Below the pieces are notes generated by a model that saw nothing but the letters and a program-made list of their open reading frames with translations, was not told the origin of the DNA and made no database searches. From the NCBI GenBank assembly GCA_027596195.1, contig JADGJG010000403.1, positions 1 through 20,891 on the forward strand: a stretch of DNA of 20,891 nucleotides, given 5' to 3'. This stretch comes from Podochytrium sp. JEL0797. Its lineage: Eukaryota; Chytridiomycota; Chytridiomycetes; Chytridiales; Chytriomycetaceae. The translations under genes and the position numbers were made by a program. Below are positions 1 through 18,979 of this stretch, in pieces. How positions within the stretch are numbered: position 1 is the first letter of the stretch; every line of letters begins with the position of its first letter.

Positions 1-1
1 C

Positions 2-1782: not shown

Positions 1783-3202
1783 ATGACACCAACCGAAACA
1801 ACAACAACGGCACCACCAGTCCCTCCGAGACCCTCGTTCGCAACTCGGTTGCGCAAGGGCGTACAAATCAGACCGATCCAGATTCTCCTTCTCTTGTTTG
1901 TCGTCTCCATTGTTATTTTCGGAACGTGGTACACGTTCTTTAAAACGAGCACCAAGTTGGACGGATGCTTTGACTCGAAAGGCAACGTGTATTCGGTCCT
2001 GGATGCCAACGGTGCTTCGGTTGATTCGAGTCGCAGTCAATGCCAGGTTCGTTTGGGTTCTCGAATCAAGCCAATTTATACACATATCGTTAATCATCCG
2101 AATCAGGCCGTTCTAAATCTTGCCAGAACTTTCGGATTTACTGCTCCCCAGACGTGTGCGGAAATCGTCAACATCACCAATCCCGCCGATCCAAGCTCGT
2201 TCATGACTGCCATGTTCTGCGACGTAAATGCAGTCTATTCGCTGAATGTCCACAACCCACCGACCCCCATTGCGCAAGTTCCAATGCCCTTCATGGCACT
2301 CGTGGATCTTGCTCTAGTTGGATTCCACGACGCGGTTTACGGAGACTCCATCTTGAATACTTTGCTCGAATCCCTGCAAAACCCGACATACTTCCAAATT
2401 TTGTGAGTGTGTGCTGAGCGTCTGTTCGATTTCCGAAAATTGTCCGAGCCGTTCATTTTTTCTGACGAATTCATTCAGAAACGTGACTGCATCCGCTTCG
2501 GCCACAAAAGTCCTCAACGGCACCATGCCTCCGCTTCCTCCTGGACTTGCCCGCAAAACTAGTTTTTTTTCCTCGTTCGGTGCGACGAATCAGAACCTTT
2601 CGGGCCCGATCCCACCGAATTACGCCGACTCCCTCGCATTCTTCAATGTTTCGAACAACCCCCTCCTTTCGGGTCCACTCCCTTCCTCCATCAACACGGA
2701 CCTGACGAGCGACAAAAACCCGCAATGGACTCAAACGAGGGGTTGCCAGTTCCAAAACACGCAGCTTTGCATCCCAGACGGATGGGCGTACCAGCCCTCG
2801 TGCATTCGAGACATGGCTTTTAGTCTTCCCATGTGCGCGATAGGCGCGATGCAGGCTACGATTAACCCCAAGGAGCCGACCGTGCTGGACAAGAATGGGT
2901 GGACGTTTAACAGAGGCGGCGGAATGTGGACGCAGCAGATTGCCATTCTGTCCATTATGTTCGTGATTTTCGTAATGTGGACCATGGTTTGGCTTCGGCG
3001 ACGGAGAATTCTGCAGGCGCAAGTGGAAGCAGATTTGCGAGACGACGATTACTACAGCCACGTTTCGCCCGAGAGGCGTCGGGAGGATATCGAGATGCAG
3101 CTGAGGCGGGAAGATGATATGAATCTGCCAACATATATGCCGCCACCACCGGGGTATTCCGCGGAACTGAGGGACGAGACTTCTCCCAAGGGAGGCCACT
3201 GA
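1783..3202 (+). CDS. two-pass membrane protein with Cys-rich and LRR ectodomain and PPxY tail, copy 2
   Basis: Exons 1783-2046, 2107-2402 and 2479-3202 (introns of 60 and 76 nt) encode 427 aa. In order: a Thr/Pro-rich cytosolic N-terminus, a membrane helix around residues 38-54, a region with spaced cysteines (CFDSKG, SQCQ, TCAEI, MFCDVN), a plant-type leucine-rich segment (LSGPIP, LSGPLPSS), a second Cys cluster, a C-terminal membrane helix followed by RRRR, and a charged tail. The tail has LPTY (403-406) and PPGY (410-413; bases 3146-3157). The charge pattern suggests both ends are cytosolic and the middle is outside or lumenal. PPxY motifs are known ligands of WW domains in Rsp5/NEDD4 ligases. 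The first intron is a multiple of 3 without a stop, so an unspliced form would be 20 residues longer. The homologue at 10683-12782 lacks these residues, so splicing is favoured. Ligand and role are unknown. Confidence 0.82.
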
Positions 3203-3221
3203 TAGATACTTACCGATTCAT

Positions 3222-3227
3222 AATAAA
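3222..3227 (+). terminator. polyadenylation signal AATAAA, copy 2
   Basis: AATAAA lies 20 nt after the stop of the second LRR membrane gene, in the same context as in copy 1. Confidence 0.7.
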
Positions 3228-3816
3228 GCGCGTTATATTTTTTACATATTTTTTTGACGGCCATCCAATGACAGTTTGAAGCTGGGCCAAAGTTTATCAA
3301 TTTATCTACTAGTTCGGCTTGAGAGTCTTTAGGATCGAGGAAGCGTGCTCACAAACACTCCCCCTGTTGTTATTTCTGAATTCTGAATAATCCAATAAGG
3401 CGAATAAGACGAACAAGGATTGTATTTCCGACTTCATCATATCTATCAATCAACGTACAACAATTATTCGTTTGCGTGCCTCGGTCAAAGTTTCGGAGAA
3501 ACGTTATCAGTGCGACGGGCGCGACCCACTTCCCGCCCTTCCTTGATTGCCGACGTAAACCAAATCTTGAAAGCCCAGTGATTTCATGTCTCCTTATCAA
3601 TCAAAAAAGTCACACGACGGAAGCTGGTATGGTGCTGCCAATACTGGTGAGAGATGCTGTGTAAAGCAATCACTCTGTCATGCTACGGATCTAAGGCAAC
3701 CTCGTCGGGATAAGTCTGCCGCCGATGATTTTTGAGTTCATGGTGATTTCATTCAAGCAAAAACGCGTCACAGGTATATAGCTTTAATTACATGTAGAAA
3801 CAACTTTGTACGTAAT
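3228..3816. other. intergenic region between convergent genes
   Basis: About 590 nt separate the LRR membrane gene (plus) from arginase (minus). The short open frames here (for example 3370-3600 minus and 3476-3664 plus) show no recognisable domain, no intron partner and no paralogue. I see no tRNA-like T-arm, no tandem repeat and no other gene. It probably holds the two 3' UTRs. Confidence 0.5.
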
Positions 3817-4952
3817 CTAGTACAACAATCCCTCGCCCAACATGGAGCGAACCAAGGAGCATCCAACTGCAACCGTCTTGGCGCGGTCTTCGGAACTTCC
3901 AAGAGCGGGGTTCACCTCCATAATATCAACAGCCACCAAAGATCCAGAGTGGTGCAACGCCTCCATAATGTAGTGTCCCTCGCGGTAAGAGAGACCACCC
4001 TTGACGGGAGTTCCAGTGGAAGGAGCAAACGCCGGGTCCATGCCGTCAACATCGTAAGAGATGTGGATTGGGCAGATCTTGTTTCCAGCGGCGTCACGAT
4101 CAGCAGGAGACTCAGGAGTGTCCGGGGCAGTCTCGTGCAGGTACTTGATGGCCGCGTCCATAATGCGTCCGATACCCCACTCATCCACCTCCGTCATGGA
4201 GAAGGCCTTAATGTTGTGGTCACGGAAGATTTGCTTCTCGGGGGCATCCACGTCACGCAGACCAATGTACACGAGACGCGAGAGGTCAAAGTCGGATTTC
4301 AACCACTTGCTAAAGTGGGGAACGTTCTTGGTGAGTCCAGACACGAACGCGATGGGGCATCCGTGCAAGTTTCCACTGGTGGTGCACTCTTCCGTGTTGA
4401 TGTCGCCGTGGGCATCGACCCAGATGAGTCCCATCTTGGGGTAGGCCTCTAGGGATCCCGACACGGTTCCGATCGCGAGGGAGTGGTCTCCACCGATGGT
4501 GAGGGCAAGCTTCTTCTCTTCACAGGCCTTCTTGACACAGTCGTGGACCTCCTTGGTGATGTTGGACACGTACTCAACGTTCTTGAGGATTCCGTAAGTG
4601 TCATCGCCCTGGGGCTTGAACTGGTGGGTGTCCAACAAGTGGTTGTCGAGTTCGACGTTCCAGTTGAGGGCTTCCATTTGGGCAATGAGACCGCCTTCGT
4701 TGAGCATGGCGGCGGGACCTTCGTCGACTCCACGTCTGGGTTGACCTCCGCCTGAGAGGAAAGAAAATTGCAGAACATCGTTAGAATCGCGTCGCCATTG
4801 TCGAAAGTCAAAGACGAGAGGAACTCACTGAATCCAGCAGCAATCAAAGCCACAGTCTTCTTTCCGTCCTTGTCACCCTTGAGCATGCGCTGCTCGGCAC
4901 GCTCGTTGGTACGGTTGTTGATAATGTCGAGTCCGAATTCAGTGGCAAGCAT
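3817..4952 (-). CDS. arginase (L-arginine amidinohydrolase)
   Basis: Arginase hydrolyses arginine to ornithine and urea using a two-manganese centre. Exon 1 is 4952-4829 and exon 2 is 4751-3817, joined across a 77-nt intron (4752-4828, GTGAGT donor, TTCTAACG branch site, CTCAG acceptor), giving 352 aa. Family motifs are present: SGGQPRRGVDEGP at 42-54, GGDHS (128-132), DAHGD (154-158), SGNLHG (167-172) and DVDGMDP (275-281), which supply the metal-binding His and Asp residues. Length fits the family (about 300-350). The ATG at 4952 is about 50 nt from a TATA-like GTATAAATAC on the minus strand. The gene diverges from the amino-acid permease at 5504, so a shared role in arginine or amino-acid nitrogen use is plausible but inferred. 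There is no obvious mitochondrial presequence, which suggests a cytosolic enzyme. Confidence 0.96.
4752..4828 (-). other. arginase intron (77 nt)
   Basis: A|GTGAGT...CTCTCAG|GC. Splicing joins exon 1 ending GF(S) to GGQPRRGVDEGP, the conserved arginase N-terminal motif. A TTCTAACG branch site lies inside. Confidence 0.9.
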
Positions 4953-5000
4953 TGTAAATTTTATTGGTATGTTTTCATGGGAGAAAGGCAGCAGGGGTTC

Positions 5001-5010
5001 GTATTTATAC
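5001..5010 (-). promoter_or_regulatory. TATA box of the arginase gene
   Basis: GTATAAATAC on the minus strand, about 50 nt before the ATG at 4952. Confidence 0.6.
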
Positions 5011-5444
5011 TTTTTACAAATGAATTAGTCACTCGGTTCAGCTCAAAGCCTCCAAGTTGTTTGGGTCCCCAGTCAAGCCTCCGTCATCGGAATGCTCCGA
5101 TTTTTAGGTCAATGAATGATTATAGACGCTCACTCCTTGAAGAACTGAAAACGCTTCGGTTTTGCTGGAGCAAGGAGCATATCGTGATTGAAAAGCACAC
5201 GCACGAAAAAAATTGTTTGCCAAGAAACGAGTCACCGCTGAAAATTTTGAACTAATTGTCTATACTATATCCGAAATGCGCGTGAAGCAATAGGGGGGGT
5301 GGAATGAGTGGGTAAAGGATGATGTTATGATGCAGCCGTAACATGCAGAGAAAATACATTCCCGGTGGCACCGATCGGCAGTTAATCAAGGCGAAGGCTG
5401 AGTACCTGGGCGTCCGCCTCCGCAGTCATCGCGGATCGACTGGA

Positions 5445-5453
5445 ATATATAAA
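5445..5453 (+). promoter_or_regulatory. TATA box of the permease gene
   Basis: ATATATAAA followed by GGG, about 50 nt upstream of the ATG at 5504. It is the strongest TATA-like match in the intergenic region on this strand. Confidence 0.65.
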
Positions 5454-5503
5454 GGGATGCCTCCACCTCACCACCGTCCACCTCTTCTCATATTCTATCC
5501 ACA

Positions 5504-7405
5504 ATGTCAGAAGTCGAGGTAGAAACGCAAGCCGCATCAGCAAATAGCACTCCCGTATTGGCCACGGAGGGCGAAAACAAACTCCAGTAAGTTCAGCCTT
5601 TAGTCGCGTTTCTCATCTTTCAGTTTCTAACGACCGTGTTTACTCTAGGCGTGGAATGTCTGCGGGACACATGGAAATGATCGCCATCGGTGGTTGCATC
5701 GGAACTGGTCTCTTGCTCAAAGTCGGACAAGCCATTTGGACCGCCGGACCAATCGGAGCTTTGATTTGCTTCTTCATTGTCGCCATCCAAGTGTTTGGTG
5801 TCATGACTGCGTTGGGAGAAATGGCCACGTACCTTCCCGTCGAAGGAATCTTTAGTCAAATCCCCAACCGTTTCTTGAACGAATCGTATGGTTTCGCTTC
5901 TGGCTGGAACTACTGGATCAACTGGGGTCTCACCATTCCCACCGAACTCGCCGCTATTGGAGGTTTCATGGCGTTTTGGGTGCCCAACGCAACAGTCCCT
6001 TCTGTAAGCTTTTCCTGCTTCTCCTCCCCCCACTGAAACTAACACTACTGTTCCGACTTTTAGTGGGCCTGGTGTGCTATTTACCTCGTTCCTCTTGCTG
6101 CCATGAATTGTTTGGACGCCGAGAACTTTGGTGACGCCGAGTTCGGTCTGTCAATCATCAAGGTGAGTAGTTTTTTGAGTGCAGTTTTTTCATGAGACGC
6201 GTCATGTTCTAAACTTTCCCCCCACCACACAGGTCGTTGCCGTTATCGTTTTCATCATCATTGCCATCATTGTCTGGTTTGGCGGAGTCACCCACACTGG
6301 CCCCATTTGGTTCCAAAACTGGGAGACTCCCATTATTGGAACCACGTCCGTCTCGCAGTTCAACAACATTTCCGCTTCTTTCGTCACTGCTTTCTTTGCC
6401 TACGCCGGAACCGAGATGATTGGTGTCGCCGCCGCAGAAGCGCACAACCCAAGAAAGAACGTTCCCAAGGCCGTCTACGGAACCTTCATCCGAATCAACT
6501 TCTTTTACATTGGCGCCGTCGGAATGCTCGGACTCATCATGCCCGCCAACGATCCCGTCTTGAACCCAAACAACCCCAGTGGAATCACGGGATCCCCCTT
6601 TGTGTACGTGTACGAACTCGTCGGAATCTCTGCCGCAGCTGACATCATGAACGCCGTCATCATCATCGCCTGTCTCTCCGCCACAAACTCCTCCATCTAC
6701 GTATGCGCGAGAACCATGATGCGACTCGCCGACGAAGGAAACGCGCCCAAGATTCTCGGATACGTGACCAAAGGCGGTGTGCCCCTCTACGCTCTCATTT
6801 TCTCGGTCGCGTTTGGTATTCTTTCCATTATCGGTGGATATCTCGGAGGAACCAACGTGGCGTTCAACTTTCTCTCGAGTTTGGTTTCGCTCGGAATCTT
6901 GGGCGCTTGGATGGCCATGTCATTTGCTCATGTTCGCTTCCGCGCTGGGTACTTGGCGCAAGGGTACAAGCTTGAGGACCTCCCGTATGTCGCTCCATTC
7001 TACCCGTGGTTGGACTACCTGAGCTTGCTGATTGGTGTGTTTGTCATTGTCATTATGATTTTCGGAGCCTTTTACGAAGTAACGGACTTTACCACCACCT
7101 GGTGGTTGAACACTTCTTGGCTGTATGGAGGACTTGGAATCATTTTCGTGCTGTTCTTTGGAAAGATTCTGTACGAGGGTATCAAAGCTGGAAACATTAT
7201 GGAAGGATTCAAGTTGGTGCCGTATGAGGACATGGACTTTGAGACGGGGAAATTGATTGAGACGGCCGAGGATTTGTTGGATGTGGACAAGAGTATGAAG
7301 GAGACTGTGCAAGATTGGATCGCCAAAGCCAAGCAGTTTACCAACGCAAAGAAGGAGAAGGAGCCATCCCCGGAGGAACCGTCCCAGGAGGCGGCAGCGC
7401 CTTGA
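5504..7405 (+). CDS. amino-acid permease (YAT/AAT-type, APC superfamily)
   Basis: A proton-coupled amino-acid importer is expected, acting in the plasma or endomembrane. Exons are 5504-5586, 5649-6003, 6064-6162 and 6233-7405 (introns of 62, 60 and 70 nt), giving 569 aa, the usual length for fungal members. After a short hydrophilic N-terminus comes GGCIGTGL in helix 1, the family's substrate-binding turn. GWNYWINWG follows, then FFAYAGTEMIGVAAAE with NPRKNVPKA, a hallmark of the fungal AAT family. About twelve hydrophobic segments are visible. The last 35 residues are Lys/Glu/Pro-rich and cytosolic. The start is supported by the TATA box and by the first splice, which creates the conserved segment before helix 1. 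Substrate cannot be assigned from sequence. The divergent arginase neighbour makes basic amino acids a reasonable but untested guess. Confidence 0.95.
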
Positions 7406-7458
7406 TTTTCGTCACGTTGTTCGTATATGTATGGGTTGTAATTTCCGCTTTTTGTTCA

Positions 7459-7464
7459 AATAAA
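7459..7464 (+). terminator. polyadenylation signal AATAAA, permease
   Basis: AATAAA lies 53 nt after the permease stop codon. Confidence 0.65.
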
Positions 7465-7742
7465 CACATTTTGTATAGTTAAATCTCTCTCTTCTTGAAT
7501 TCTCATCGGATGAGTCAGGTATCGGATCTGTTTTCACCGCCGATTTCAGGAGACGGAAATATGGAAATCATAATACAACAGCTCCCATGCCTCCAAACAA
7601 AGGAGCAATCAGTTGCGTACCCATTCGTTCTTAAGAGTGAAAAAAAGTTTAAAAGACCTTACGTTTTATTTCCACGCGTATTAGGGGGGAAAAAGTTTTG
7701 CATGAATTCTCCATGAATTCTCCTCGCGGCGCAAGAAAGGGA
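7465..7742. other. intergenic region between convergent permease and aldo/keto reductase
   Basis: This stretch holds both 3' UTRs. It contains an 11-bp tandem direct repeat CATGAATTCTC at 7701-7711 and 7712-7722, and AATAAA on the minus strand at 7665-7670 for the reductase. The open frame at 7495-7716 has no recognisable content. Confidence 0.5.
7665..7670 (-). terminator. polyadenylation signal AATAAA, aldo/keto reductase
   Basis: AATAAA on the minus strand, 72 nt beyond the reductase stop. Confidence 0.55.
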
Positions 7743-8893
7743 TCAAGCGTTCACAAGTGTCATCCCGCGCGCGTCGTAACGAGTTCCCGTCACGGGAATC
7801 TGCGCAATAATATCACGCACGGCCTTGTTGTCTTCAGGAGTGATGGTAACGTTCAAAGATCCACAGTTTTCGTCGAGACGCTGCGTTGTGTGGTGGTGCC
7901 AATTAGGAATACCGTTAGAGGTTAGAAAATGTGCAAGAAGAGAGTGTTTCGAACAACAACCCACCTTAATACTCTTGGTCCCCGGAATCGGAATCACACA
8001 AGGCCCCTGCGCCATCACCCACGCCAACGTCAACTGCGCAACCGAACACTTTTTGTCCTCAGCCAACTTTTCCAACGCCTTCACAATCTCCAAGTTCTTG
8101 GCAAACGCGTCCCCTTGGAACCGCGGGTTTCCCTTGCGATAATCGCCTTCCTCAAAATCCTCGGGACTGCGGAACCGACCCGTCAAAAAACCACGTCCGA
8201 GTGGAGAATACGCAATCACAGCAATCCCGAGTTCATTACACGTCGCGAGGATATCATTGTGTTCGATTTCGGTGGTCCATGGGGAGTATTCGACTTGGTA
8301 CGCGGCAATGGGGTGGATGGCGTGGGCGCGACGAATCGTGGCGGCGGAGGCTTCCGAGAGACCAATGTGTTTGATTTTGCCTTCGTTGACGAGAGTCACG
8401 AGGGCACGCATAGTGTCTTCGATGGGGGTTTTGGGGTCCACTGTCATGTATCGATTATGTGCGGGGAATTGGTGGTTGAGTGAGTCATTTGGATTTGATA
8501 TACCCCTCGGGTATTACCGCGATGCTGGTAATACAAATCGATGCATTCAATCCCAAGTCTCTTCAACGAAGCCTCACACGCACTCCTCACATACGCAGGG
8601 GATGAATCCAATCCCATCGTGGGGTGCCGCACGATTCCAAACTTGGTGCACACAAACACCTTGTCACGGCACTGATGCATTTTGATAAACTTGCCAATGA
8701 GCTCCTCGTTGTGTCCGGATCCGTACATGTCAGAAGTGTCCCAGAACGTGCATCCAATGTCGAGGGCGTGTTTGAGGGTTGCCAGAGATTCGGATTCATC
8801 TGTCGCGCCGTAGAATTCGCTGAGACCCATTGCGCCAAAGCCAAGGGCAGAGACGAGTGGGTTGGAGGTGGTGCCGAGGTGGGTTTGCTTCAT
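7743..8893 (-). CDS. aldo/keto reductase (AKR13-like)
   Basis: An NADPH-dependent carbonyl reductase with a TIM-barrel fold is expected. Exons 8893-8518, 8440-7965 and 7880-7743 (introns of 77 and 84 nt) give 329 aa, typical for the family. The catalytic tetrad is visible: Asp52 in WDTSDMYG, Tyr57, Lys84 in CTKFG and His124 in YYQHR. The first intron falls inside YYQHRVDPKTP and restores this conserved segment on splicing. The second restores [19 protein letters not shown], the cofactor-binding end of the barrel. [10 protein letters not shown] and [11 protein letters not shown] are further family landmarks. The N-terminus resembles the yakC/pyridoxal reductase type group. Physiological substrate is unknown. 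Its ATG lies 116 nt downstream of the LITAF gene stop on the same strand, leaving little room for a promoter. Confidence 0.95.
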
Positions 8894-8961
8894 TGTTGGG
8901 AGGGAAAAGTGGTTGGGACTTGGGGATGTTTTTTGTGGATAAGAATACGAACGCGGTCTTC

Positions 8962-8967
8962 TTTATT
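8962..8967 (-). terminator. polyadenylation signal AATAAA, LITAF gene 1
   Basis: AATAAA on the minus strand, 42 nt beyond the stop of the LITAF gene at 9010, inside the short gap before the reductase. Confidence 0.55.
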
Positions 8968-9009
8968 TTTACCTCCCCCGCCTACTCATTAAAAACATAC
9001 TACTTCATT

Positions 9010-9623
9010 TTACGCCGGCGCAACGGCCACCACTTTTCGACACACTGGACACACATGAATCCGATCTAGCATTACACACATATTAATTTCAGAGAGTCAC
9101 CTCCCGCCCCACCCCCCAATTTACGTTACCTTTAAACCGATCCATAACAAGCGGAATCCAGAAACACGGCCAACACCCAATCAAACACAAACACCCACTG
9201 AACAAATACCCACTACAACTCGTTGTCGAAGCCACCATCGACACGACATTGTTGTGGCAGTGTTTGCAATACATCATCACCGAGTTGGATCCGTCCACCA
9301 GCATGACGGGAGGGTCGTTGAGGAGTGTGGCGGTGCTCTGCTGTTGCACGTATACGGTTTGCATGGGGATTGTTTGGGCGGGCATGGTTTGGATGGGGAC
9401 GCCGGGATAGTTGGCTTGTGATTGGGGGAGCGAGTAACTGCATATGTGAAATGAGGGTGTCAACACTCGTGGGGGGGTGGGTGATGACAACGAGGGACAC
9501 TCACGCTGGGGGTGGCGGCAAAGGCTGCGAAGACCCACCCTGCTGTGCATCCGAGGTCTGCAGCGGCTGTTGTTGTTGGCTCGCAGCGGCGGCGGCCTTC
9601 TGGCTTTCTTCGGCAGTCCCCAT
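9010..9623 (-). CDS. LITAF-domain protein, intact copy
   Basis: Exons 9623-9505, 9437-9130 and 9065-9010 (introns of 67 and 64 nt) encode 160 aa. The N-terminus is Ala/Gln/Pro-rich and contains PPAY (38-41), a PPxY motif split by intron 1. The C-terminal LITAF domain has the first zinc knuckle CKHC (97-100), a hydrophobic Cys/Trp-rich stretch GCLCLIGCWPCFWIP (121-135) and the second knuckle HVCPVC (146-151), which is completed only after splicing of intron 2. In characterised LITAF/SIMPLE proteins the split zinc ribbon is anchored to the cytosolic face of late endosomal membranes by the central stretch, and the PPxY motif binds NEDD4-type ligases. An endosomal adaptor role is inferred by family. 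The start ATG is the first in frame, and the sequence before it is unrelated. Confidence 0.9.
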
Positions 9624-9979
9624 TTTGAGAATGAATTTTGTGGAGATTGGAAGCCGAGGAGATTGGTGGTGGACGCCGTGTCGGCGAAAAAAGCGGGGTT
9701 GTAAACCAAGCCAAGGCGAGACACAAAATCAAAACTCCTTCTCCCCCGGAAATAAATAAAAATATACATGATAAGAAATCCGAGGGGGAATCGAAATTGA
9801 AGGCTGGGCGCTGCCCGCTGGATATTTCCCCGGATCTCAAACCCAACCCTTCCTCCAACTGACATTCATTGTTGTTGGGCGAGATCCTAAAATTTTGACG
9901 CGTTTTTTATTAGTTAATTGCCCTTTCCCCCCTCGGCTCGTTTCCCCCCCTTACATTATCAAAAAACCATCTCATTCTT
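9624..9979 (-). promoter_or_regulatory. promoter of LITAF gene 1 and 3' region of LITAF copy 2
   Basis: This 356-nt gap holds the upstream region of LITAF gene 1, with AT-rich TATA-like sequence near 9752-9766 on the minus strand. It also holds the 3' end of copy 2, with AATAAA on the minus strand at 9906-9911. No further gene is visible. Confidence 0.45.
9906..9911 (-). terminator. polyadenylation signal AATAAA, LITAF copy 2
   Basis: AATAAA on the minus strand, 68 nt beyond the stop at 9980. It suggests the second copy is, or was, transcribed. Confidence 0.5.
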
Positions 9980-10402
9980 TTACACTACCCCAACAGCCAC
10001 CTTTTTTTGACACTTTGGACACACAACAACTGGATCTGCATTATTACAAAAAAAAGCGTTTCAGAAAAACGGAATCCCCCCCAATCCACATTACCTTTGA
10101 ACCGATCCATCACAAGCGGAATCCAGAAACAAGGCCAACACCCAAACAAACACAAACACCCACTAAACATATATCCTTTTGAGCTCGTTTTCATAGCCAT
10201 CGTTGAATTCACATTGTTGTCGCAGTGGGTGCATGCAGTAGGCGGCGCCACCGCCGACGATTTGCATGGGGATTGTTTGGGGGGGCATGGTTTGGATGGG
10301 GGTCCCAGAGTAGACGGGCATGGGTTTTTGGGGTGGTGGGTAGTATCTGTTGCAGTGTTTAATTCGTGGGGGGAGGGGGGTGACAACGAGAAGGAAACCT
10401 AC
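9980..10402 (-). pseudogene. LITAF-domain protein, second copy with a 4-nt frameshifting duplication
   Basis: This is a tandem paralogue of the gene at 9010-9623, close at the nucleotide level. Exon 2 is 10346-10095 and exon 3 is 10035-9980 (intron 10036-10094, 59 nt). An upstream intron, 10347-10402, matches the paralogue's first intron. The LITAF domain itself is complete: CTHC, GCLCLFGCWPCFWIP, then VCPKC after splicing. The upstream part (PIQTMPPQTIPMQ, as in copy 1) is in another frame, because TGCATGCA at 10230-10237 is a tandem TGCA where the paralogue has a single unit. The only nearby ATG in exon 2 leads into the wrong frame. No ATG lies between the TATA box and the exon 1 donor. It is probably a pseudogene; a sequencing error is possible. 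Confidence 0.7.
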
Positions 10403-10460
10403 CCTTGATTTTGTATTTTTGGAGATGGAATAAATTTACCAAACGAAAAAAGGGGGGTGT

Positions 10461-10470
10461 GTTTTATACC
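10461..10470 (-). promoter_or_regulatory. TATA box of LITAF copy 2
   Basis: GGTATAAAAC on the minus strand lies about 60 nt before the exon 1 donor of copy 2. The promoter therefore looks preserved although the reading frame is not. Confidence 0.5.
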
Positions 10471-10641
10471 TAAATCTGCGGCGAAAAGCCAAAAAGCGGC
10501 AATAAGATGAAACAGAAATTTGTAGGAATTACCTGGGAATTACCCAACGAATTACGCCCATTGCCAGCTTCTAAGCAACGAAATTAATCAAGAAATAACC
10601 CGCAAACCAAAAACCCCGCTCTGTATTTTTTATTACTCATA

Positions 10642-10647
10642 TTTATT
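10642..10647 (-). terminator. polyadenylation signal AATAAA, third LRR membrane gene
   Basis: AATAAA on the minus strand, 35 nt beyond the stop at 10683. Confidence 0.6.
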
Positions 10648-10682
10648 GCACTTATGTCACACTCATGTAAGAAAAAACAAAA

Positions 10683-12782
10683 TCATTGCGTTATAGAATT
10701 GGCCGTATCCTCCCCACCTTCCTTCCCTGTATCCCGTGACACGTCCACCATCCCAACCACATGCAGCGCAGGAGGAGCAGGAGGAGTAGAAGGAGGAGAA
10801 GATGCAGAATCAGGGATGATTGTTATCGGTCGCGTATCCGAAACGAATATCGGCTCCTCCGCCTCCACGCGCGTGTCTTTCGCAGATTTCGTATCATTCG
10901 CAGGCACCGTCTTGCTCAACATCAACACCCGCATTTCCTCCTTCCCAATCCTCTCATCGGGCCTCACATCCCCCATCGGAATCATTTCCACACAATCCAC
11001 CCCGCCGCCGACACCCCCACTGCCGCCTCCAGCGTCCCCACCCCGACTCACCAACCACTCCCCTCTCCCCACATACTCCGGAACCCTCGCCTCATACCGC
11101 GGCAACTCCATCTCCCGTTCCCTCTCCGCCCTCTCCCTCTCATCCCGTTCCAACTCCTCCCGGCCGGGGAGGTACCCACTCGTACTGTACACTTGTCGGT
11201 TCGCAAACACTTGACGGTATTGTCGGCCTTTCCAGTACACGATGACGCCGGCGAGGACGACAAGGATGAGGATGGCGACGCCAGCGTATTTGACTACAGT
11301 TGTGAGTGTGTCCTGGGCGCCGTTGTTCGGAGGTTGGAGGACGGTAATCACGGGATTCGAAGGATCAATAGGACGTGGAATCGTGTCGGAGGGGTTCGTG
11401 GAGTTTGTACAGGTGGGCAACGCGTCGGTCGCGTTTCGGATACAAGCCGGTTGGTGAGGCCAGGAAGGCGGGATGCAGAGGTTCGTGTGGGAAAAGGCGC
11501 ATTCGAGGGATTGCGTCCATTGAGGGGTGTGGGTGATGGAGGTGAAGGTGGAGGCGGGGAGGGGACCGGTGAGGTGGGTGTTGTTGGCGAAGGAGCTGTT
11601 GGTGTGTGCGTTGAAATTAGGACGGATAAAATGTCGGCGTTAATCCTCCGCATTGGCATTCGCGTTTCTACGATGACTTGTTCGCTTCGCTCACTCCCTC
11701 ACGCAGCGAAGCTGCATTCCGCGTTGCCATTCCCACATAAATTGTTCGCTTCCCTCACTCTCTCGCGCAGTTTCGCTGCGGCAATCCCTGCTTAAACTGT
11801 TCACTGCGCCTTCTACGCGCCCGCCCGCTCACCCACACCCGCCCCGCGTCGCTTCGCTCGGCCCCACTCGGGCTCCCATCCACACTCTCACAGCCGCCTC
11901 GCTTCGCTCGGCTCCGCTCGACGATCAACAAACATACGTGTAAGGCAAGGTATCAGCCATGGAATCCGGAAAGGTTCCAGACAGATTATTGTTTGCCACA
12001 AAAAGGTTATTGAAAAAGGGCTGCTGAAGAGACATTGGAATCTGCGGGATGGAACCACTGACGACCCGGGTAGACACGTTCATGAGGTTCGAGTTGCCTG
12101 TCATGTTGCTAGTATTTGGTGGTGGTTGGAATGGTTGTTTTGGAATTCAAACAGGCTGTGACTCACAGCACGGTGAAGAACTTTGAGTTGCCGAGCACGT
12201 TGAGCAATGGGGCCAGCACGTTGTTGCCGTACAAGGCATTGTGCATACCGAGACCCCACAGGTTGGTCAGGTTCGCCATTGCGTCGGGAACAGCGTTGAG
12301 GGAGACGGGCGGGTTGTGAACCGACACAAGGTAGATTGTATTTGTGTCGCAGAAGCCAGCCGTGAGGAACGAGGTTGGGTCGTTTGGGTTTGTGACAGTG
12401 GTCTAGTTCTAGTGGTGAGTGGAGATCATGGAGTGGTGATCATGACAGGAGTTGTTACATTCTGGCTGCACTCGTCGATCGCAAAGCCAAACTGCCTCGC
12501 CATGGCAAGAAGGGCCACGCACTGGGACGCATTCTGGGCTACTGGGTCACTCGGTGATCCAAACAGCGAAAAGGCGGCGCCAGACGAAGCCTCGAAACAC
12601 CCGTCGAGTCCAATGCTGCCACTGCCAAGTCCCGCACCGCCGCCCTTGACAACCGCAAAGTACACGGCCGCAAGAACTGCCCCAACGAGAACACTCAGTC
12701 CAACACCGCGAACAATCCGCATGCGCTGATCACGCCCCGCTGAAGTGAACATGAAAGCAGTCGGCGTCGGGAACCGCGCCAT
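10683..12782 (-). CDS. two-pass LRR-type membrane protein, third diverged family member
   Basis: Exons 12782-12459, 12402-12167, 12108-11938 and 11595-10683 (introns of 56, 58 and 342 nt) encode 547 aa, longer than copy 2 because of the tail. It aligns with copy 2 throughout: first helix near residues 27-45, LDGCF, SQC followed by a GFA/GFT segment, FCDTNTIYLVSVHNPP, LSGTFPDS and LTGPLPAS leucine-rich units, CAFSHTNLCIPPSW, then a second helix (YAGVAILILVVLAGVIVYW). The cytosolic tail is Glu/Arg-rich, then Pro/Ser-rich, with LPRY and VPEY in place of PPGY. Only the middle intron (TVL|NMT, phase 2) is shared with copy 2. The exon 3/4 junction was fixed by homology and by a CCTAATT branch site with AACAG acceptor. 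It diverges from the bHLH gene at 12995. Function is unknown. Confidence 0.8.
11596..11937 (-). repeat. 342-nt repeat-rich intron in the third LRR membrane gene
   Basis: Donor AC|GTATGT and acceptor AACAG|CTCC are fixed by protein homology on both sides. It is over four times longer than any other intron here. It holds two copies of a unit of about 64 bp (TTGTTCGCTTCSCTCACT at 11679 and 11743), each ending in a small hairpin: GCAGC/GCTGC at 11703-11715 and CGCAG/CTGCG at 11766-11780. The 13-mer TCGCTTCGCTCGG occurs twice, at 11849-11861 and 11899-11911. Its composition is unlike the flanking exons. It could be an inserted short repetitive element. Confidence 0.7.
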
Positions 12783-12994
12783 TTCAAATTAATGTTTGAT
12801 TTTTTGGGTTTCTCAAGAACACTCGCTTATTATTAATCCAAGTCGACTCTTTCCTTTCTTTCATTGCCAAATAGCGTGAGATCATCCTTGCCTCATTTCT
12901 ATTAATTGCCATTCCAGCCTTGTGTGAGTGCGAAAAGCAGATTGAATTTTTTTCTTCGTTTCGCCTTTGCCCCCTCAGCTTCCAGTTGTCCCCA
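12783..12994. promoter_or_regulatory. divergent promoter between the third LRR membrane gene and bHLH gene A
   Basis: A 212-bp gap lies between divergent ATG codons at 12782 (minus) and 12995 (plus). No clear TATA box is seen. A GTGAGT-like site near 12923 and TTCCAG near 12985 could bound a 5'-UTR intron of the bHLH gene, which is speculative. Confidence 0.4.
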
Positions 12995-14415
12995 ATGGCG
13001 CACTTTGGCAGCAGTGACCGCCACTCCGAGTTTGAATTCGAAGAAATGTATCGAGCCAACGCAAACGTGAATGCTGGCGGACTTCAGCCCGAGTTCAAGC
13101 CGCACGTCCTTGTCAACCCGACACCAGATAACCAGTTTCTGTGGGACCACACCAGCGATAGCATGCTCGGCTTCCTTGACTCTGAGGCATCGCTGTTCAA
13201 CCTCGGGATGGACCAAGGCGCGAGTGTGTTTGCCTCGGAGGGCTCCCTGGGCTTCTGGCCCGAATCTTCTCACAACGGCCCAGGCCCACAGAAGCGAAGC
13301 AGCAGTGCCATGTCCGCCACCAGCAGCAGTTCTCTTGCTGCCCCCAAGGCCAAGAAATCCGCTGCCCTGAATCCCGCCCTGGAAGTGATCAACAACCACC
13401 CCAAATCCAAGAGCTCGTCCCCTGATTTCGAATGGACCCTCAATGTCCCACCCGAGCCCGATCACGAACCCAGCTTGTTTCGCATGACGCCCGCCCAAAT
13501 GATGCTCGACATGTCCGCCATCCACACCCCAACTTCCCCTTCAGAAACCTCCCTCATCGACCCCGTCCAACCCCCCACCACGAACGCCCTACCCCCAAAC
13601 TTCTCTCAATACCGCTCCAACTCACTCCATCTACTTGAATCTCCGCTGTTCTCACACCAAGCCCCGTTATCTCCCTTCGCATTCTCGCCGTTGATGATTC
13701 CATCCGTGCAACAAACTCCCTCCTTCACGTCCTCCAACACTCTCTCCTCCGCGCTGTCAGCCACCATGTCCAATATTCACTTAAATCCAACCATGTTCAA
13801 CCAACTCCTCGTATCTCCGGCCCTCGATCCATCGTATGGATCCACCTTGTCTCCGTTTTCGCCGGCAATGTTGCCGGATTCTTCGTGGTCTTTAGCTATT
13901 CCTCAACACCAGCAACAGCAACAGTATCAACAACTGCATCAAACTATGCCAATGACAATGAGTCCCATGATGAATCCGCATGAAGTTGGTTTTGGGGCCC
14001 TCGATGCACCTGACACATCACCCCGCGATGCGAGGAATCCTGCAGTCGAAACTCCTTTGGTTGCCAAAAACAAGTGTGGGAGGAAACGGAGAGCTCCCGT
14101 GATTCTGTAAGTTTCCCGCCCCCCGTCGCATTCATTCATGCTTACCGATCCTCTCGCCCCAATAGCTCTCCGGAAGAAGACCTTCTCCTCAAATCGACCC
14201 GCAAGGAAACCGAAAAACTACGTCGCGCCGCCATGAAAGCCGGGTTTGACGAATTGCAGCTCATGCTTCCACGCGATTGGGTGACCAACAAGGCGCCGAA
14301 TCAGGCGCGACTACTAGAACTCGTGTTGCTATATATTGAGGGTTTGGAGCAGGAGGAGAGGGAAAAGAGGGAGGTTGTGAGGCGGTTGGAGGAGGAGGTG
14401 GCACGGTTTACATAG
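12995..14415 (+). CDS. bHLH-type transcription factor A
   Basis: Exons 12995-14106 and 14166-14415 (59-nt intron, CT|GTAAGT to AATAG|C) encode 453 aa. The first 370 residues are low-complexity: Ser/Pro-rich, with acidic and Phe-rich patches and a Gln run near residue 310. RMTPAQMM lies at 163-170. Exon 2 carries the DNA-binding domain: basic region TRKETEKLRR (382-391) with Glu387 and Arg390/Arg391 in the ExxRR positions that read E-box DNA in bHLH proteins, helix 1 ending DELQLMLP, a loop, and helix 2 with ARLLELVLLYIEGL. A Glu/Arg-rich helix follows. The gene is expected to act as a nuclear dimer, with targets unknown. ATG 12995 is the first in frame; the open frame extends upstream only to a non-ATG codon. 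The intron sits just before the DNA-binding domain. Confidence 0.85.
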
Positions 14416-14497
14416 GCGGTGGTTGCTTCGACTTTGTCAGGGTTTCTTTTAGAATATCATATTGCTGCACTCGTTTTTCTTTTCCTTGTGTCCACAG

Positions 14498-14719
14498 TTC
14501 ATCCGAGGAAGAACTTGCACTCAAATCCACTCGCAAAGAAACCAAAAACTGCGTCGCGCGGCCATGAAATCCGCGTTTGACGAATTGAAAGAATTGCTTC
14601 CACGCGATTGGATCACCAACAAGGCGCCGAATCAGGCGCGGCTACTAGAGCTCGTGTTGCGGTATATTGACAGTTTGGTGCAGGAGGAAAGGGAGAAGAG
14701 GGTGGTTGTGGCACAGTGA
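14498..14719 (+). pseudogene. duplicated, frameshifted bHLH exon (copy of exon 2 of gene A)
   Basis: This closely matches exon 2 of gene A (14166-14415) and is preceded by its own pyrimidine tract and acceptor (TGTCCACAG at 14489-14497). No separate upstream exon or ATG is seen. Relative to gene A one base is missing near 14547, where ACCGAAAAAC became ACCAAAAAC, so the SSEEELALKSTRKET start runs into a stop at CCATGA. The rest of the helix-loop-helix stays open in another frame up to 14719 (LRRAAMKSAFDELKELLP, ARLLELVLRYIDSL). It probably arose as a tandem exon duplication that could once have served as an alternative terminal exon. Confidence 0.75.
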
Positions 14720-15160
14720 TGATAATCCTTTGTAGTTTTATAGTTTATTCAGAGTATCATAGTTGGTCGTTTCTTGGTCTCTTTCTCTCTCTCTCCTTCA
14801 GACGATCTGGCTAAAATCTGCCAATTTCTCTGCGAAACCGGGCAATTGATATCACAGCATAATACGGCACTTCATCACCTCAAAAAAAATGAAATGGATC
14901 TGAGGGGGAAACAATCCTTATGACCGCGCCCTGCCATGGAAGTTGCATATATTGTGCTTATGTTGAGGGCGTTTTAGTAAATGAGGGAAAGAAAGGGGGT
15001 TTCAATTGGAGATAACCATCTTGGGGAGTGGAGCTGAAGCGTGTTGTGGTCTTATCTTCGATTTTTACAAGAGTCCTTATCGCGACGTGTGGGATGATTC
15101 TTCCGCGGCACACTGGGCATACATCTCCGCTGATCGATTTTTTAATTTGAGGTTCAAAAA
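14720..15160. other. intergenic region, no gene seen
   Basis: About 440 nt separate the broken exon from the next bHLH copy. There is a pyrimidine-rich CTCTCTCTCT tract near 14783. The open frame that begins at 15006 has no ATG at its start and no homology to the other bHLH genes before about 15210. I see nothing else. Confidence 0.45.
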
Positions 15161-16582
15161 ATGGATTGCGTTATTGCGGCGCAACCCAATCTTAACCGCC
15201 CATGAAAAGAACCCCAAATTGAAGGATATTGAAGTTCTCATGCAGCTCGATATGGCCTTCCTGGACTCGATTCTCGACTGCGACTAGTTTGCAGACACTC
15301 TTGCGACATCCAATGCAGATTTCCACCCGTCCGCGTCCGTGACACAGCCGAACCTCCTTCCTCCCAACGACATGACCTTGGATCCACTCTTTGGCTATGA
15401 CCCGTACCTCGCGTCTTCCCTGGGCCCTCTGCAGCACGGGTTTGACAGCACGGCGGGACAATATCACTTCGGACTTGGCGCACAAGCCTTGGCAGAATTA
15501 AGCCTCCCCGCATTCGTGCCGAACCCTATTGCGTCTCACTCATTGATCTTTCCATTCATCTTCAATTATGACAACTTGATGGCGGAAATGCTGGCCACGC
15601 AGCACCGGAATCATCAGAATCACCGGAATCAACAGTTTCAGCAACACCAGCCACAACAGCAACCGCCAAACCTACAGTATCCCTTTTATGGCTTTCAAAA
15701 AATCCCTCTTCAATGGACCCAACTCCAGTCTTTCATCAGCAGCCACTCCCGAATCATATTTCTAATGGGTTCGCACGTGACAACCAACCACAACATCCTT
15801 CTCCAAATACACGCAAGAGGGTCGTGCAACAACGTGAAACATCTTGTCTAGTTCCCAAAAGCGCCATGGATCGCGTCCCCGAATCCTTTTCGCGAATGAC
15901 ACCATCCATGATTATGTCATCAACGACGTCAGAAACCAATCCAGACACAAGGGCATCCGGAATAACGCCTTATTCCGTCTTGGAGTTTGAAAATGAATCC
16001 GGCAGGTCCTCAACAACAGTCAGGTTTCCTTCGTCTCCTCCCACAACTTCTGCCTCAACATATCACGCATTGCCTCCTGTTGCAGCAATCCGAAATGTTC
16101 CAAGTCGAGTGACCCCCTCTTCCATCATGGCATCCTCATCCTTCTCCAACACGTCCGAAGCTGCACCGAACGCGACTTTCTCCTTCCGGGAGCCTCCAAC
16201 GCGACGATCCAGCTCGCTATCATCTGAGTCTGACCACACTCTTCGAGCCGCAAAACGACTAAAATCGGCACCCAAGCCTTCCTTTGCAACTATCCTCACT
16301 ACCCAGAGTGCGACCTCTTACGACCGCAAGACGTACCGCAAAGAAGCTGAGCGACATCGCCGCGAGAGGATCAAGTTTTGTTTTGAGGGTGTGAAGCAGA
16401 TTCTTCAACGAGACTCGTTTGGGACGCGATCGCCGTCCAAGGTGAAGGTGCTGGATACGGCGAGGGAGTATATTGAGGATCTGCGGAACAGTGCACAGGG
16501 GAAAGAGCGCACTGCGAGTGAGATGGAACAGGAGATTGAGTGGTCGAGGGTGAGGCTTGGGGTTGAGGCTGGCGTTGTTTGA
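15161..16582 (+). pseudogene. bHLH-type transcription factor C, multiply disrupted
   Basis: This is a homologue of gene D (16752-17858). The N-terminal motif LDMAFLDSIL matches LDMDFLNSLL of D but runs into an in-frame TAG at 15285-15287, where D has CCG. The frame then continues (FADTLA, as FADSLI in D) through a Gln-rich segment to about 15700. At the A6 run 15697-15702 one base appears lost, and the protein resumes in the next frame (PSSMDPTPVFHQQ) to the stop at 16582. The C-terminal bHLH is canonical: YRKEAERHRRERIK (ERxRR type), then VKQILQRD and KVLDTAREYIEDL. RMTPSMIM, GITPYSVL and RVTPSSIM motifs are present. A third frame change near 15200 would be needed to use ATG 15161. Either a decaying gene or errors at low-complexity sites. 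Confidence 0.7.
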
Positions 16583-16751
16583 TAATATGAACATTATTCC
16601 ACTTTTGTTGACGGGTATTATTAATGTTATGACTGATTTTACCAGGCGATGCCATTTGAGAGATTATGCTATCATATCGGAAGCTGCGGTGCTGCTAACA
16701 AATTCATTTGAACCTTTCCGAGTCAAAAAACGAACTCGAACAAAAGCAACC

Positions 16752-17858
16752 ATGGTACAGCCACGCCCCTCTGTCGGAGACAACTCCATTGAGGACCTGT
16801 CTTTACTGGATATGGACTTTCTGAACTCCTTGCTCGAAAACGACCCGTTCGCTGACTCTCTGATTGCGGCACACCCATCCTCCTCGAATGCTTCCGTGCA
16901 TGGTGGCATCAACAACACAAGCGTTTTCGGTCCCAACGGCTTTCAATCTGCTGCAGCTCTTTCATTCTCAGGCACACAACAGCTTCCCATAGCCGACAGC
17001 CCTATGCTACCTTTTCTTGAGGACTTCAACATTCCCTTCCCCGCAAATTCGATCATGCCTGGCTCTCAACTTCAAGGCTTCAGAGACGATACCATGTCAG
17101 AAATGCTGCCATTTCCATACCCGAACCAAAATTTTGATACACCACAAGCGCTGCCCAACGGCCTCTTGCCATTTATCAGCTTCGACAACATGTCCATTTC
17201 AACCAACACTTTTACCCAAACGCAACCATCGCGTAGCCAACTTCAACAAGAACAACAGCTTCTCCCCAACTACCCAGAATTTGAAATATCGCACCACCCC
17301 CCTCGCTCAACCACCAACGTCATTCGCCACTCGCGAACAAGCTCCGCCCCAGCAATGTTTGCGCCCTATTCACGCGCAACTCCTTCCTCAATCATGTCCT
17401 CAGTATCTGGAGTAACACCTTCCTCCTTTTTGACCTTTCCAAGCACCAACCCACCAAACCCGCCTGCCCGACAACAAAGCCTTCCTCTCGCGGGTGGAAT
17501 TTCTCAAATCACATCCACTATGATCCAACAAGAACCCAAATCGGAACTTTCTCGCCGACATCCAAGAACCCACGCCGCCGTCCCACGATCGGTGGAGTCC
17601 CGCAAAATGTACCGCAAGCATGCCGAAAAGGCGCGTCGTGAGTTGCTCAAAGTTTCCTTCGCCGAGGTGAAGCAGATTCTGCCCGGCCACTGTTTTGCCG
17701 AGCGACTGCCGTCAAATGAGAAGGTGCTGGACAAAGCCAGGGAGTATATTGAGGACTTACGCGGTAGTGCGCAGGGGAAGGAGCAGACTGTGAGTGAGAT
17801 TGAGCGGGAGATTGAGCGGTTGAGATTCGGGCAACCCCCGGCAAAGGGCGATTTATAA
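16752..17858 (+). CDS. bHLH-type transcription factor D
   Basis: A single exon of 368 aa. The start ACCATGG has a strong context and lies only 170 nt from the end of copy C; an in-frame extension upstream has no homology. The N-terminus has LDMDFLNSLL, an acidic/hydrophobic motif that may be an activation segment. A Ser/Pro/Asn/Gln-rich middle follows, with RATPSSIM (17373-17396) and GVTPSSFL soon after. The bHLH is at about residues 284-338: MYRKHAEKARREL (Glu292, Arg295, Arg296 in the ExxRR positions), VKQILP, a loop, and KVLDKAREYIEDL. A heptad-like ERxIERLR helix follows and could extend the dimer interface. It is the best preserved of the C/D type. Its DNA targets and partners are unknown. 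Confidence 0.85.
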   Translation: MVQPRPSVGDNSIEDLSLLDMDFLNSLLENDPFADSLIAAHPSSSNASVHGGINNTSVFGPNGFQSAAALSFSGTQQLPIADSPMLPFLEDFNIPFPANSIMPGSQLQGFRDDTMSEMLPFPYPNQNFDTPQALPNGLLPFISFDNMSISTNTFTQTQPSRSQLQQEQQLLPNYPEFEISHHPPRSTTNVIRHSRTSSAPAMFAPYSRATPSSIMSSVSGVTPSSFLTFPSTNPPNPPARQQSLPLAGGISQITSTMIQQEPKSELSRRHPRTHAAVPRSVESRKMYRKHAEKARRELLKVSFAEVKQILPGHCFAERLPSNEKVLDKAREYIEDLRGSAQGKEQTVSEIEREIERLRFGQPPAKGDL

Positions 17859-18003
17859 TGTCTCTCTCCGTTTTTCTATACATTAATTTTTGAATCTAAT
17901 TGAGAAGCCTGCTGTTGGTATCCTGTGAAGTGATGCAAATGAAGGGAAGGCTACGAACGGGGCCATATTGTGGCACAGTCATTAAATGCCCAGTATAACT
18001 TCT

Positions 18004-18016
18004 TGTATATATTTAT
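18004..18016 (+). promoter_or_regulatory. TATA-like element before gene E
   Basis: TATATATTTATAT ends only 6 nt before the first ATG of gene E (18023). If this is the TATA box, transcription would begin after 18023 and translation would more likely start at ATG 18212. Confidence 0.5.
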
Positions 18017-18022
18017 ATCAAA

Positions 18023-18979
18023 ATGAGTCGTTCTCCATTGCTCCTATCTCGCGAAGAAGAGAGCCTCATCGCTGTGCTGCAGTTCGACTTTGCCGTTGCT
18101 GCGCACAACTTCAGTCCAACCTCTTGCTGCGGCTCATCGTGTGGCCTCACGGCAAAGATCCGTAGCTTTGATACTTATGTGGCAAGCCCGTTAGAGAACG
18201 AAAACTCCAACATGGACTTTTCACAGCATGGTGCGCCCCACGCAGAAGTATCTTCATTCTCGTTGCCACTAGAACGGCACCATCGGCAAAGCCTTTCTCA
18301 GCCCACATCATCGTCACCACCACCCACCTCCTTATTCCTCCCACGAATATCTCCAAAATCCAACCTCTCCTCGCCAAGCTCTTCGAGGAGTGCGAGCGTC
18401 AACTTCTATTCCGACGCGTTTGGGCGATTGACTCCTTCTCAGATCTTGCAAATTGATCTGCTCGAGGATAGGACGAACCTGTTCCCTTCAGCAACGATTT
18501 CACTCTCGCCATCCCAACTTTCTGTCAAAGAGCACGCTCAGTTGTATGGTTCCGATCAAGAGGACTTGGAAAACTCGCCCACAACTTCCACCTTTTGCGA
18601 CTGGAGCGACTCGCCGACGAGTTCTTTGCCAGGCAGTGGAGTGTTGCAGCCGAGTGCATTGGTGGGAAGCGAACATGTCGTGATGGAGGGGTTGGAGAGT
18701 ATGGCCGATTCGGCAAAGCCACCGTTGGTGTGTTCACCACGGAATTATTCTCGTTGCAGGGCGGATACGAGACGCCGCGAGCTCATCAATCAACTTCTAC
18801 ATGAGATTGGTACTCTCAGGTCGGGATTTCGGAGAAAGGTGCGAGTTTTCCTCAACTTTTACCTCCTTTTTCCTAATCGCTTCAGTTTTCTTCAATTGCA
18901 GCTGTCTGAGGAAACTAAAGAGTTCTTGGAATTGGAGGCCGAAATCGAGGAGATCTTGAGAGTGCATGTTTTAATATAA
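18023..18979 (+). CDS. divergent bHLH-like protein E with degenerate basic region
   Basis: Exons 18023-18838 and 18902-18979 give 297 aa, or 234 aa if translation begins at the in-frame ATG 18212 (MDFSQHG). The 63-nt intron (18839-18901) has a CCTAATC branch site and TTGCAG acceptor, is a multiple of 3 and has no stop, so an unspliced form would stay open. The protein is Ser/Pro-rich and has RLTPSQIL (18425-18448), the motif shared with A, C and D. Near the end, SRCRADTRRRELINQLL aligns with HAEKARRELL of D and is followed, after splicing, by LSEETKEFLELEAEIEEIL as a second helix. The key glutamate of ExxRR is Asp here, so DNA binding may be altered or lost. It may act as a dimerisation partner (inference). 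Confidence 0.65.
   Translation: MSRSPLLLSREEESLIAVLQFDFAVAAHNFSPTSCCGSSCGLTAKIRSFDTYVASPLENENSNMDFSQHGAPHAEVSSFSLPLERHHRQSLSQPTSSSPPPTSLFLPRISPKSNLSSPSSSRSASVNFYSDAFGRLTPSQILQIDLLEDRTNLFPSATISLSPSQLSVKEHAQLYGSDQEDLENSPTTSTFCDWSDSPTSSLPGSGVLQPSALVGSEHVVMEGLESMADSAKPPLVCSPRNYSRCRADTRRRELINQLLHEIGTLRSGFRRKVRVFLNFYLLFPNRFSFLQLQLSEETKEFLELEAEIEEILRVHVLI
18839..18901 (+). other. 63-nt stop-free intron in gene E
   Basis: AAG|GTGCGA...CCTAATCGC...TTGCAG|CTG. It translates without a stop, but the predicted insert is hydrophobic/aromatic and would break the helix-loop-helix, so splicing is favoured. Confidence 0.65.

What the first reader, a model, noticed from the sequence alone, without database searches (positions are those of the whole stretch)
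12995..18979. A shared R-x-T-P-x-x-[IM]-[ML] motif across a bHLH cluster, outside the DNA-binding domain
Gene A has RMTPAQMM (13481-13504), C has RMTPSMIM (15893-15916) and RVTPSSIM (16106-16129), D has RATPSSIM (17373-17396) and E has RLTPSQIL (18425-18448). C and D also have a second, related element a short way downstream (GITPYSVL, GVTPSSFL). These segments lie in otherwise low-complexity, poorly alignable sequence, yet persist even where the bHLH has diverged (E). The TP core could be a phosphorylation site of proline-directed kinases inside a short helix used for co-regulator binding or turnover. I do not know a described motif of this form.
Basis: partly seen in the sequence, partly recalled or inferred. 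Interest (0 to 1): 0.78.

Follow-up and report, generated by a model that had tools for sequence, protein, structure and literature searches.

The report
Private motif of a chytrid bHLH cluster
A family of DNA-binding regulator genes that multiplied side by side in an aquatic chytrid fungus shares one short protein signature outside its DNA-binding part, which points to a common, still unknown control partner or switch.

Summary
All five R-x-T-P copies and both related elements are at the stated places. The window is a contig of a chytrid, Podochytrium sp. JEL0797, judged by one identical protein and a contig length. Contig C112 holds a second cluster with 11 bHLH hits. De novo enumeration makes RhTP..hh (h = hydrophobic) the best-shared non-bHLH word: 7 of 8 lineages, shuffles 3-4. 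A genome-wide DNA pattern gave 13 hits, 11 in the clusters; the other 2 encode Ser for Arg. Ten loci with bHLH genes elsewhere show none. Ser, Lys and non-Pro versions are absent. Best reading: a lineage-private, often repeated short linear motif in disordered tails, probably a phospho-Thr switch read by one shared partner. The motif is well shown; the mechanism is inferred. AlphaFold shows no helix at the motif. Orthologues could not be tested. Gene C has a stop and a frame change; E's bHLH is degenerate.

The parts
12995..14415 (+). Gene A, two exons (12995-14106, 14166-14415; my model); Ser/Pro-rich N-terminal tail, bHLH in exon 2
   Evidence: PF00010 in exon 2, E 9.9e-7; 64% identical to C112:32301-33458
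13481..13504 (+). Motif RMTPAQMM in A (C112 counterpart: RMTPAQMI)
14453..14719 (+). B: tandem copy of A's bHLH exon without a tail of its own; matches HLH positions 10-52 of 53
   Evidence: PF00010 hit 14546-14677 in an 88-codon open frame; 63% identical to the g1 exon over 59 aa
15240..16579 (+). Gene C region: TAG at 15285-15287, and a change of frame between the ORFs 15288-15848 and 15572-16579, both of which match the single open frame of g3; probable pseudogene or assembly error
   Evidence: bHLH at 16325-16486
15893..15916 (+). Motif RMTPSMIM in C
15959..15982 (+). Related element GITPYSVL in C; the counterpart in C112 gene g3 is RMTPCSVL
16106..16129 (+). Motif RVTPSSIM in C
16752..17858 (+). 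Gene D, single exon, bHLH at the C-terminal end
   Evidence: PF00010, residues 284-337
17373..17396 (+). Motif RATPSSIM in D
17409..17432 (+). Related element GVTPSSFL in D
18023..18979 (+). Gene E (read unspliced); tail kept, bHLH degenerate, second helix apparently lost (by eye against g9)
   Evidence: 55% identical to C112:43865-44755; no Pfam family; longest branch in the bHLH tree
18425..18448 (+). Motif RLTPSQIL in E

Best explanation
The segment is a real short linear motif, R-h-T-P-[S/A]-[Q/S]-[I/M]-[M/L], often with F, Y or L two residues before the Arg. In this genome, in the form searched, it is private to one tandemly expanded chytrid bHLH family, and it sits in one to three copies in the disordered tails. 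Most likely it is a docking switch: a CMGC kinase of DYRK/Yak1 or MAPK type phosphorylates the Thr (Arg at -2, Pro at +1), and one shared protein reads the phospho-Thr plus the hydrophobic pair, so that family members are controlled together (activity, localisation or turnover) whatever DNA site each binds. Shown: existence, out-of-sample recurrence, no Arg-coding hit elsewhere for the pattern searched, lack of R/T/P variants apart from two Gly-initial elements, sameness of protein rather than DNA.
For: Out-of-sample recurrence. Best-shared word in an unbiased enumeration. 11 of 13 genome-wide DNA hits in the two clusters, the other 2 coding Ser for Arg. 0 copies in about 121,000 aa of six-frame ORFs of 60 aa or more from the 10 loci with other bHLH genes, two C112 flank loci and window 1-12800. 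0 copies of R-h-SP, K-h-TP, R-h-T-notP and R-polar-TP in the full form (chance expectation for each is also under 0.2, so this shows lack of decayed variants, not a deficit). Third codon positions of T and P are 25% identical between R copies, as random (its 19 rows include one wrong-frame match). In the tails of 10 C112 genes 15 of 36 TP have Arg at -2, against 2 of 74 SP. Arg -2 with Pro +1, which is the motif's own definition, fits DYRK1A (PMC3677093, passages); RxtP is a fungal phosphosite class (PMC7751435, passages).
Against: No phosphorylation data for any chytrid were seen. Strict Thr is unusual for a kinase consensus alone, and Arg at -3, favoured in some DYRK work cited by PMC3677093, is absent (0 of 18). 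No known pThr-reader rule tried fits: by the motif's own make-up Cks1, Polo box and Cdc4/FBW7 are excluded, and 14-3-3 gives 0 and FHA 1 of 18 (rules recalled). AlphaFold gives no structure at the motif. In close pairs the motif is not exceptional: 16-26% of tail windows are as conserved for A/g1, E/g9 and the two R copies of C/g3, 5% for D/g3, and 44% and 23% for the two Gly elements. All copies come from one tandem family in one genome.
Confidence: 0.42

Rival explanations
1. The motif is a binding element used without phosphorylation: Thr-Pro caps a short helix (hydrophobic at -1 and +4, Gln or Ser at +3) that folds on a co-regulator.
For: Strict Thr. A capping-box residue at +3 in 14 of 18 copies; hydrophobic at both -1 and +4 in 15 of 18, which largely follows from how the copies were picked (capping rules recalled). 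Up to three copies per protein suit avidity.
Against: Two AlphaFold models show no helix at the motif. Ser, Asn or Asp could also cap, yet no copy of the full form has them. The Arg is not explained. A hydrophobic at position 10 in 11 of 20 copies, counting the two Gly-initial ones, reads more like an extended hhxh strand.
Confidence: 0.27
2. No special function: the motif is the best-preserved scrap of an ancestral N-terminal region in tandem duplicates.
For: The genes are paralogues in two related clusters. A, C and E keep the motif much as they keep other stretches of their C112 counterparts.
Against: Between lineages it is the most widely shared long non-bHLH word. Silent sites at T and P are randomised. 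Four genes (C, g3, g4, g11) hold two or three R copies at different places. No R, T or P variants of the full form except the Gly elements.
Confidence: 0.12
3. Hydrophobic docking for a MAP kinase (D-site-like) or for SUMO (hhxh), with the TP as a secondary site.
For: A loose D-site rule with one Arg fits 14 of 18 copies. A hydrophobic at position 10, as in hhxh, is present in 11 of 20 copies, counting the two Gly-initial ones and one with Arg at position 8.
Against: D-sites usually need a cluster of basic residues (recalled), which was not counted here and is not seen by eye in most copies. Position 10 is not hydrophobic in 9 of 20. Neither rule explains the invariant T and P.
Confidence: 0.1

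Closest known systems
bHLH transcription factors (Pfam PF00010)
   Same: 15 places in the two clusters score over the PF00010 cut-off, B included, E not
   Different: Basic-region position 5 is Arg in 15 of 15 cluster domains compared (14 by script, g9 by eye; E counted, B not), against His in 9 of 10 other bHLH domains of the genome (8 by script, C15 by eye); R-h-T-P motif in 11 of the 14 genes with a tail; E has lost a recognisable bHLH
DYRK/Yak1-type phosphosites (Arg at -2 to -4, Pro at +1)
   Same: Arg -2 and Pro +1 (PMC3677093 passages on DYRK1A; Yak1 recalled)
   Different: Arg at -3 in 0 of 18, Thr only, plus a hydrophobic pair at +4/+5 that no DYRK rule seen here asks for
RxtP phosphosite class of the Lentinula edodes phosphoproteome
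   Same: Same R-x-T-P core (PMC7751435 passages)
   Different: That class is a statistical summary over many proteins; the passages read give no hydrophobic tail and no link to one family
MAP-kinase D-sites and SUMO-interacting motifs (recalled)
   Same: Basic residue upstream of hydrophobics; hydrophobic at position 10 in 11 of 20 copies
   Different: T-P core invariant; position 10 not hydrophobic in 9 of 20

Membership tests
bHLH transcription factor (PF00010) | HLH domain over the curated cut-off | tested here: met
   A, C and D met, and 11 of 11 C112 genes; E not met
bHLH, E-box binding class | H5-E9-R13 in the basic region (rule recalled) | tested here: not met
   Position 5 is Arg in 15 of 15 cluster domains; position 9 is Glu except Asp in E and g9; the RR pair is kept (g9 and C15 registers read by eye)
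DYRK-type kinase site | Arg at -2 to -4 and Pro at +1 | tested here: met
   18 of 18, which follows from the motif's definition; specificity from PMC3677093
DYRK-type kinase site | phosphorylated in vivo | not testable with these tools
   no chytrid phosphoproteome seen
Cdc4/FBW7 phosphodegron | hydrophobic upstream, TP, acidic or Ser/Thr at +4 (recalled) | tested here: not met
   0 of 18; excluded by the hydrophobic at +4
Cks1, Polo-box, FHA and 14-3-3 ligands | recalled consensus of each | tested here: not met
   0, 0, 1 and 0 of 18; the first two are excluded by the motif's own residues at -2 and -1
MAPK D-site | basic cluster plus hxh | tested here: inconclusive
   loose form with one Arg 14 of 18; the basic cluster was not counted
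Pre-formed helix | helical in prediction | tested here: not met
   coil with low pLDDT at the motif in D (3-row alignment) and g11 (single sequence)

The most novel reading that the evidence does not exclude
The motif is a family badge: a new Thr- and Arg-strict linear motif read by one dedicated partner, through which a locally expanded set of transcription factors (eleven motif-bearing genes found) with an altered basic region (Arg for His at position 5) is switched as one unit, independently of DNA binding, as E's decayed bHLH suggests.
Probability: 0.28. Interest if true: 0.68.

Novelty: new variant of a known kind. Interest (0 to 1): 0.5.

Why it matters
Linear motifs in disordered tails are hard to find because tails do not align. 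Here tandem paralogues in two clusters act as a natural experiment and expose one whose R, T and P hardly vary and which, in the form searched, is not coded elsewhere in the genome. If true, it gives a handle (a peptide bait) on how an early-diverging fungus controls a lineage-expanded regulator family, and suggests that a motif can outlive the DNA-binding domain it came with.

Tried and rejected
Protein search for orthologues: three searches. D alone: none. A profile of six cluster proteins: one hit, the genome's own g11 (HDU98_004247), with only the best 7995 candidates scored. g10 region 345-470: none. D, g3, g4, g9 and g10, whose own letters were in the query, did not come back, so the database seems to lack most of this cluster and the null is uninformative.

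Rejected: chance; a recent DNA-level repeat; a motif of the genome's other bHLH genes (10 loci with 11 over-cut-off hits; two sub-cut-off hits were not fetched); a doubled assembly as source of the second cluster (Rpb2 domain at three loci, as expected for Pol I, II and III), though arginase has further copies and the two blocks share an arginase 99% identical in protein. Four-residue words were not informative: shuffles reach as many lineages. Papers, all seen as listings unless said otherwise: RxTP as a whole word gave one paper, PMC7751435, whose passages I read; six motif hexamers gave three papers, one on concrete and two on plant AP2/ERF factors that hold TPSQIL once each, not opened; chytrid bHLH, fungal bHLH, Podochytrium, DYRK (none) and helix capping gave no description of this motif in titles or abstracts shown. 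PMC3677093 was read in passages.

Dropped rows: RRTPCHLR at C112:37590, a wrong-frame match listed and included in its 19 R rows; B and g2 have no tail and were left out of the counts of 14; C547 was left out of the tree as an apparent duplicate of C79. In one search the split of cluster from other bHLH genes is weak (57/83). RLTPSSLR (g11) is among the 18 copies but not the 17; RATPSQPI and RQTPAGGG (g10), which lack the hydrophobic pair, are in neither.

Full report
Where it is. The window is the whole contig C339 (20,891 bases) of a 24.4 Mb, 995-contig genome. One protein of a second cluster on contig C112 (154,326 bases) is letter for letter the public record HDU98_004247 of Podochytrium sp. 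JEL0797, whose longest contig has the same length; the organism is a chytrid of the Chytriomycetaceae.

The observation. All five R-x-T-P copies are in frame at the stated coordinates, and both G-x-T-P elements too. The bHLH domain is found in A, C and D over Pfam's cut-off, not in E read unspliced. C has a TAG at 15285-15287 and changes frame between the ORFs 15288-15848 and 15572-16579, while its counterpart g3 on C112 is one open frame; C is probably a pseudogene or an assembly error.

A second cluster as test set. PF00010 finds 26 places over cut-off in the genome: 4 in the window, 11 on C112 between 33.5 and 48.3 kb, 11 elsewhere. A, D and E have matches on C112 (64%, 44% and 55% identity over the matched parts). 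In the 7 without a window counterpart it occurs 5 times (mean 0.013). With wider hydrophobics, 17 full copies occur in 14 tails of 4158 aa, 0.02 expected. Eleven of 14 genes with a tail carry it; g5, g7 and g8 do not. C, g3, g4 and g11 carry two or three R copies.

Unbiased search. I grouped the 14 genes by hand into 8 lineages. Among all 6-position gapped words within 9 residues, with I, L, M, V and F merged, RhTP..hh leads alone with 7 of 8 lineages; next is 5; 15 shuffles peak at 3-4. An aromatic upstream also recurs: F.R.TPS in 5 lineages in the unmerged 5-position search, shuffles 3-4; F, Y or L stands there in 9 of 18 copies. With only four fixed positions the signal is not above shuffles, so the strength lies in the long form.

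Genome-wide. The DNA pattern for R-h-T-P-[S/A]-x-[I/M]-h had 13 hits in 24.4 Mb: 7 on C112 and 4 in the window, all inside the clusters and on the plus strand, and 2 elsewhere whose first codon (AGC, AGT) is Ser; the backward control had 5. The pattern covers only some codons and letters: it found 11 of the 18 known R copies, so copies elsewhere could be missed. No match occurs in about 121,000 aa of six-frame ORFs from the 10 loci with other bHLH genes, two C112 flank loci and window 1-12800.

What is fixed. No R-h-SP, K-h-TP, R-h-T-notP or R-polar-TP version of the full form occurs; the only such changes are the two Gly-initial elements in C and D. Three further TP sites on C112 with Arg at -2 lack the hydrophobic pair: RATPSQPI and RQTPAGGG in g10, RLTPSSLR in g11. 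In g3 the second element has Arg (RMTPCSVL). Third codon positions of T and P are random between copies (25% identity), so the sameness is of protein, not DNA. Against: within close pairs the motif is not exceptional; 16-26% of 8-residue tail windows are as conserved for A/g1, E/g9 and the R copies of C/g3, 5% for D/g3, and 44% and 23% for the Gly elements of C and D.

Family history. In a tree of 25 bHLH domains all 10 non-cluster domains fall on one side of a branch, weakly (57/83), and motif presence needs three changes, which may be one gain and two losses. Basic-region position 5 is Arg in 15 of 15 cluster domains (14 by script, g9 read by eye) and His in 9 of 10 others (8 by script, C15 by eye; C101 has Gln). 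The two blocks also share an arginase 99% identical in protein and an amino-acid permease about 77% identical, so the bHLH genes evolve fast around a steady motif.

Mechanism. Arg -2 and Pro +1, which define the motif, fit DYRK1A, whose Arg pocket may accept -2 to -4 (PMC3677093, passages read); the same passages report Arg -3 as favoured in some DYRK studies, and no copy has it. RxtP is among the five largest Thr motifs in a mushroom phosphoproteome (PMC7751435, passages read). The absence of Ser, while SP (98) outnumbers TP (48) in the tails, suggests that something reads the Thr itself: a phospho-Thr reader or an unphosphorylated recognition. Known reader rules (recalled) fail: Cks1, Polo box and Cdc4/FBW7 are excluded by the motif's own residues, 14-3-3 fits 0 and FHA 1 of 18. 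The helix-cap reading has a capping residue at +3 in 14 of 18, but AlphaFold models of D (3-row alignment) and g11 (single sequence) leave the motif as low-confidence coil. I commit to a phospho-Thr docking switch at 0.42, with an unphosphorylated co-regulator element next.

Limits. One genome; gene models mine except g11; no orthologues tested, no expression or phosphorylation data. The three protein searches are uninformative as nulls because most cluster members queried were absent from the database.

Noticed in passing
window 14191-17762 and C112:33552-48287 (loci L009, L010): Arg replaces the usual His at basic-region position 5 in 15 of 15 cluster bHLH domains compared (14 by script, g9 by eye), while 9 of 10 other bHLH domains of the genome have His; DNA-site preference may be shifted.
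   Followed up: partly
window 14453-14719: B is a tandem copy of A's second (bHLH) exon directly behind A, with an acceptor-like AG before it; the exon-like sequence appears to change frame within the basic region (read by eye), and the HLH lies in an open frame. An alternative exon of A or its relic.
   Followed up: no
window 3817-7402 and C112:21492-22442, 51756-53613: Arginase and amino-acid permease genes lie near both bHLH clusters; arginase is 99% identical in protein but differs at 37 of 152 fourfold sites, permease about 77% identical: an old, rearranged segmental duplication.
   Followed up: partly
window 276-1374, 1495-3202, 10683-12788: What look like tandem copies of a membrane protein, with a third divergent copy on the minus strand; four ORFs tested match no Pfam family.
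   Followed up: no
window 9089-9862 and 9985-10395 (minus): Two adjacent LITAF-like zinc-ribbon genes (PF10601).
   Followed up: no
window 16800-16856 (D residues 17-35) and the N-terminus of C112 gene g3: Acidic-hydrophobic N-terminal segment (DMDFLNSLLEN in D, DMAFLDSLLED in g3) predicted helical in D (residues 21-29); looks like a separate activation segment.
   Followed up: no
G000:C79:93129-93347 and G000:C547:13040-13258: Two bHLH hits of equal score and frame length on different contigs, probably a duplicated or haplotypic assembly piece.
   Followed up: no
C112 genes g5 and g7 (L009 8762-9580, L010 1366-2253): These motif-less genes hold PLSPSSTVPIRL and PLSTSSIMPIRL, which resemble a decayed copy of the motif.
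   Followed up: no
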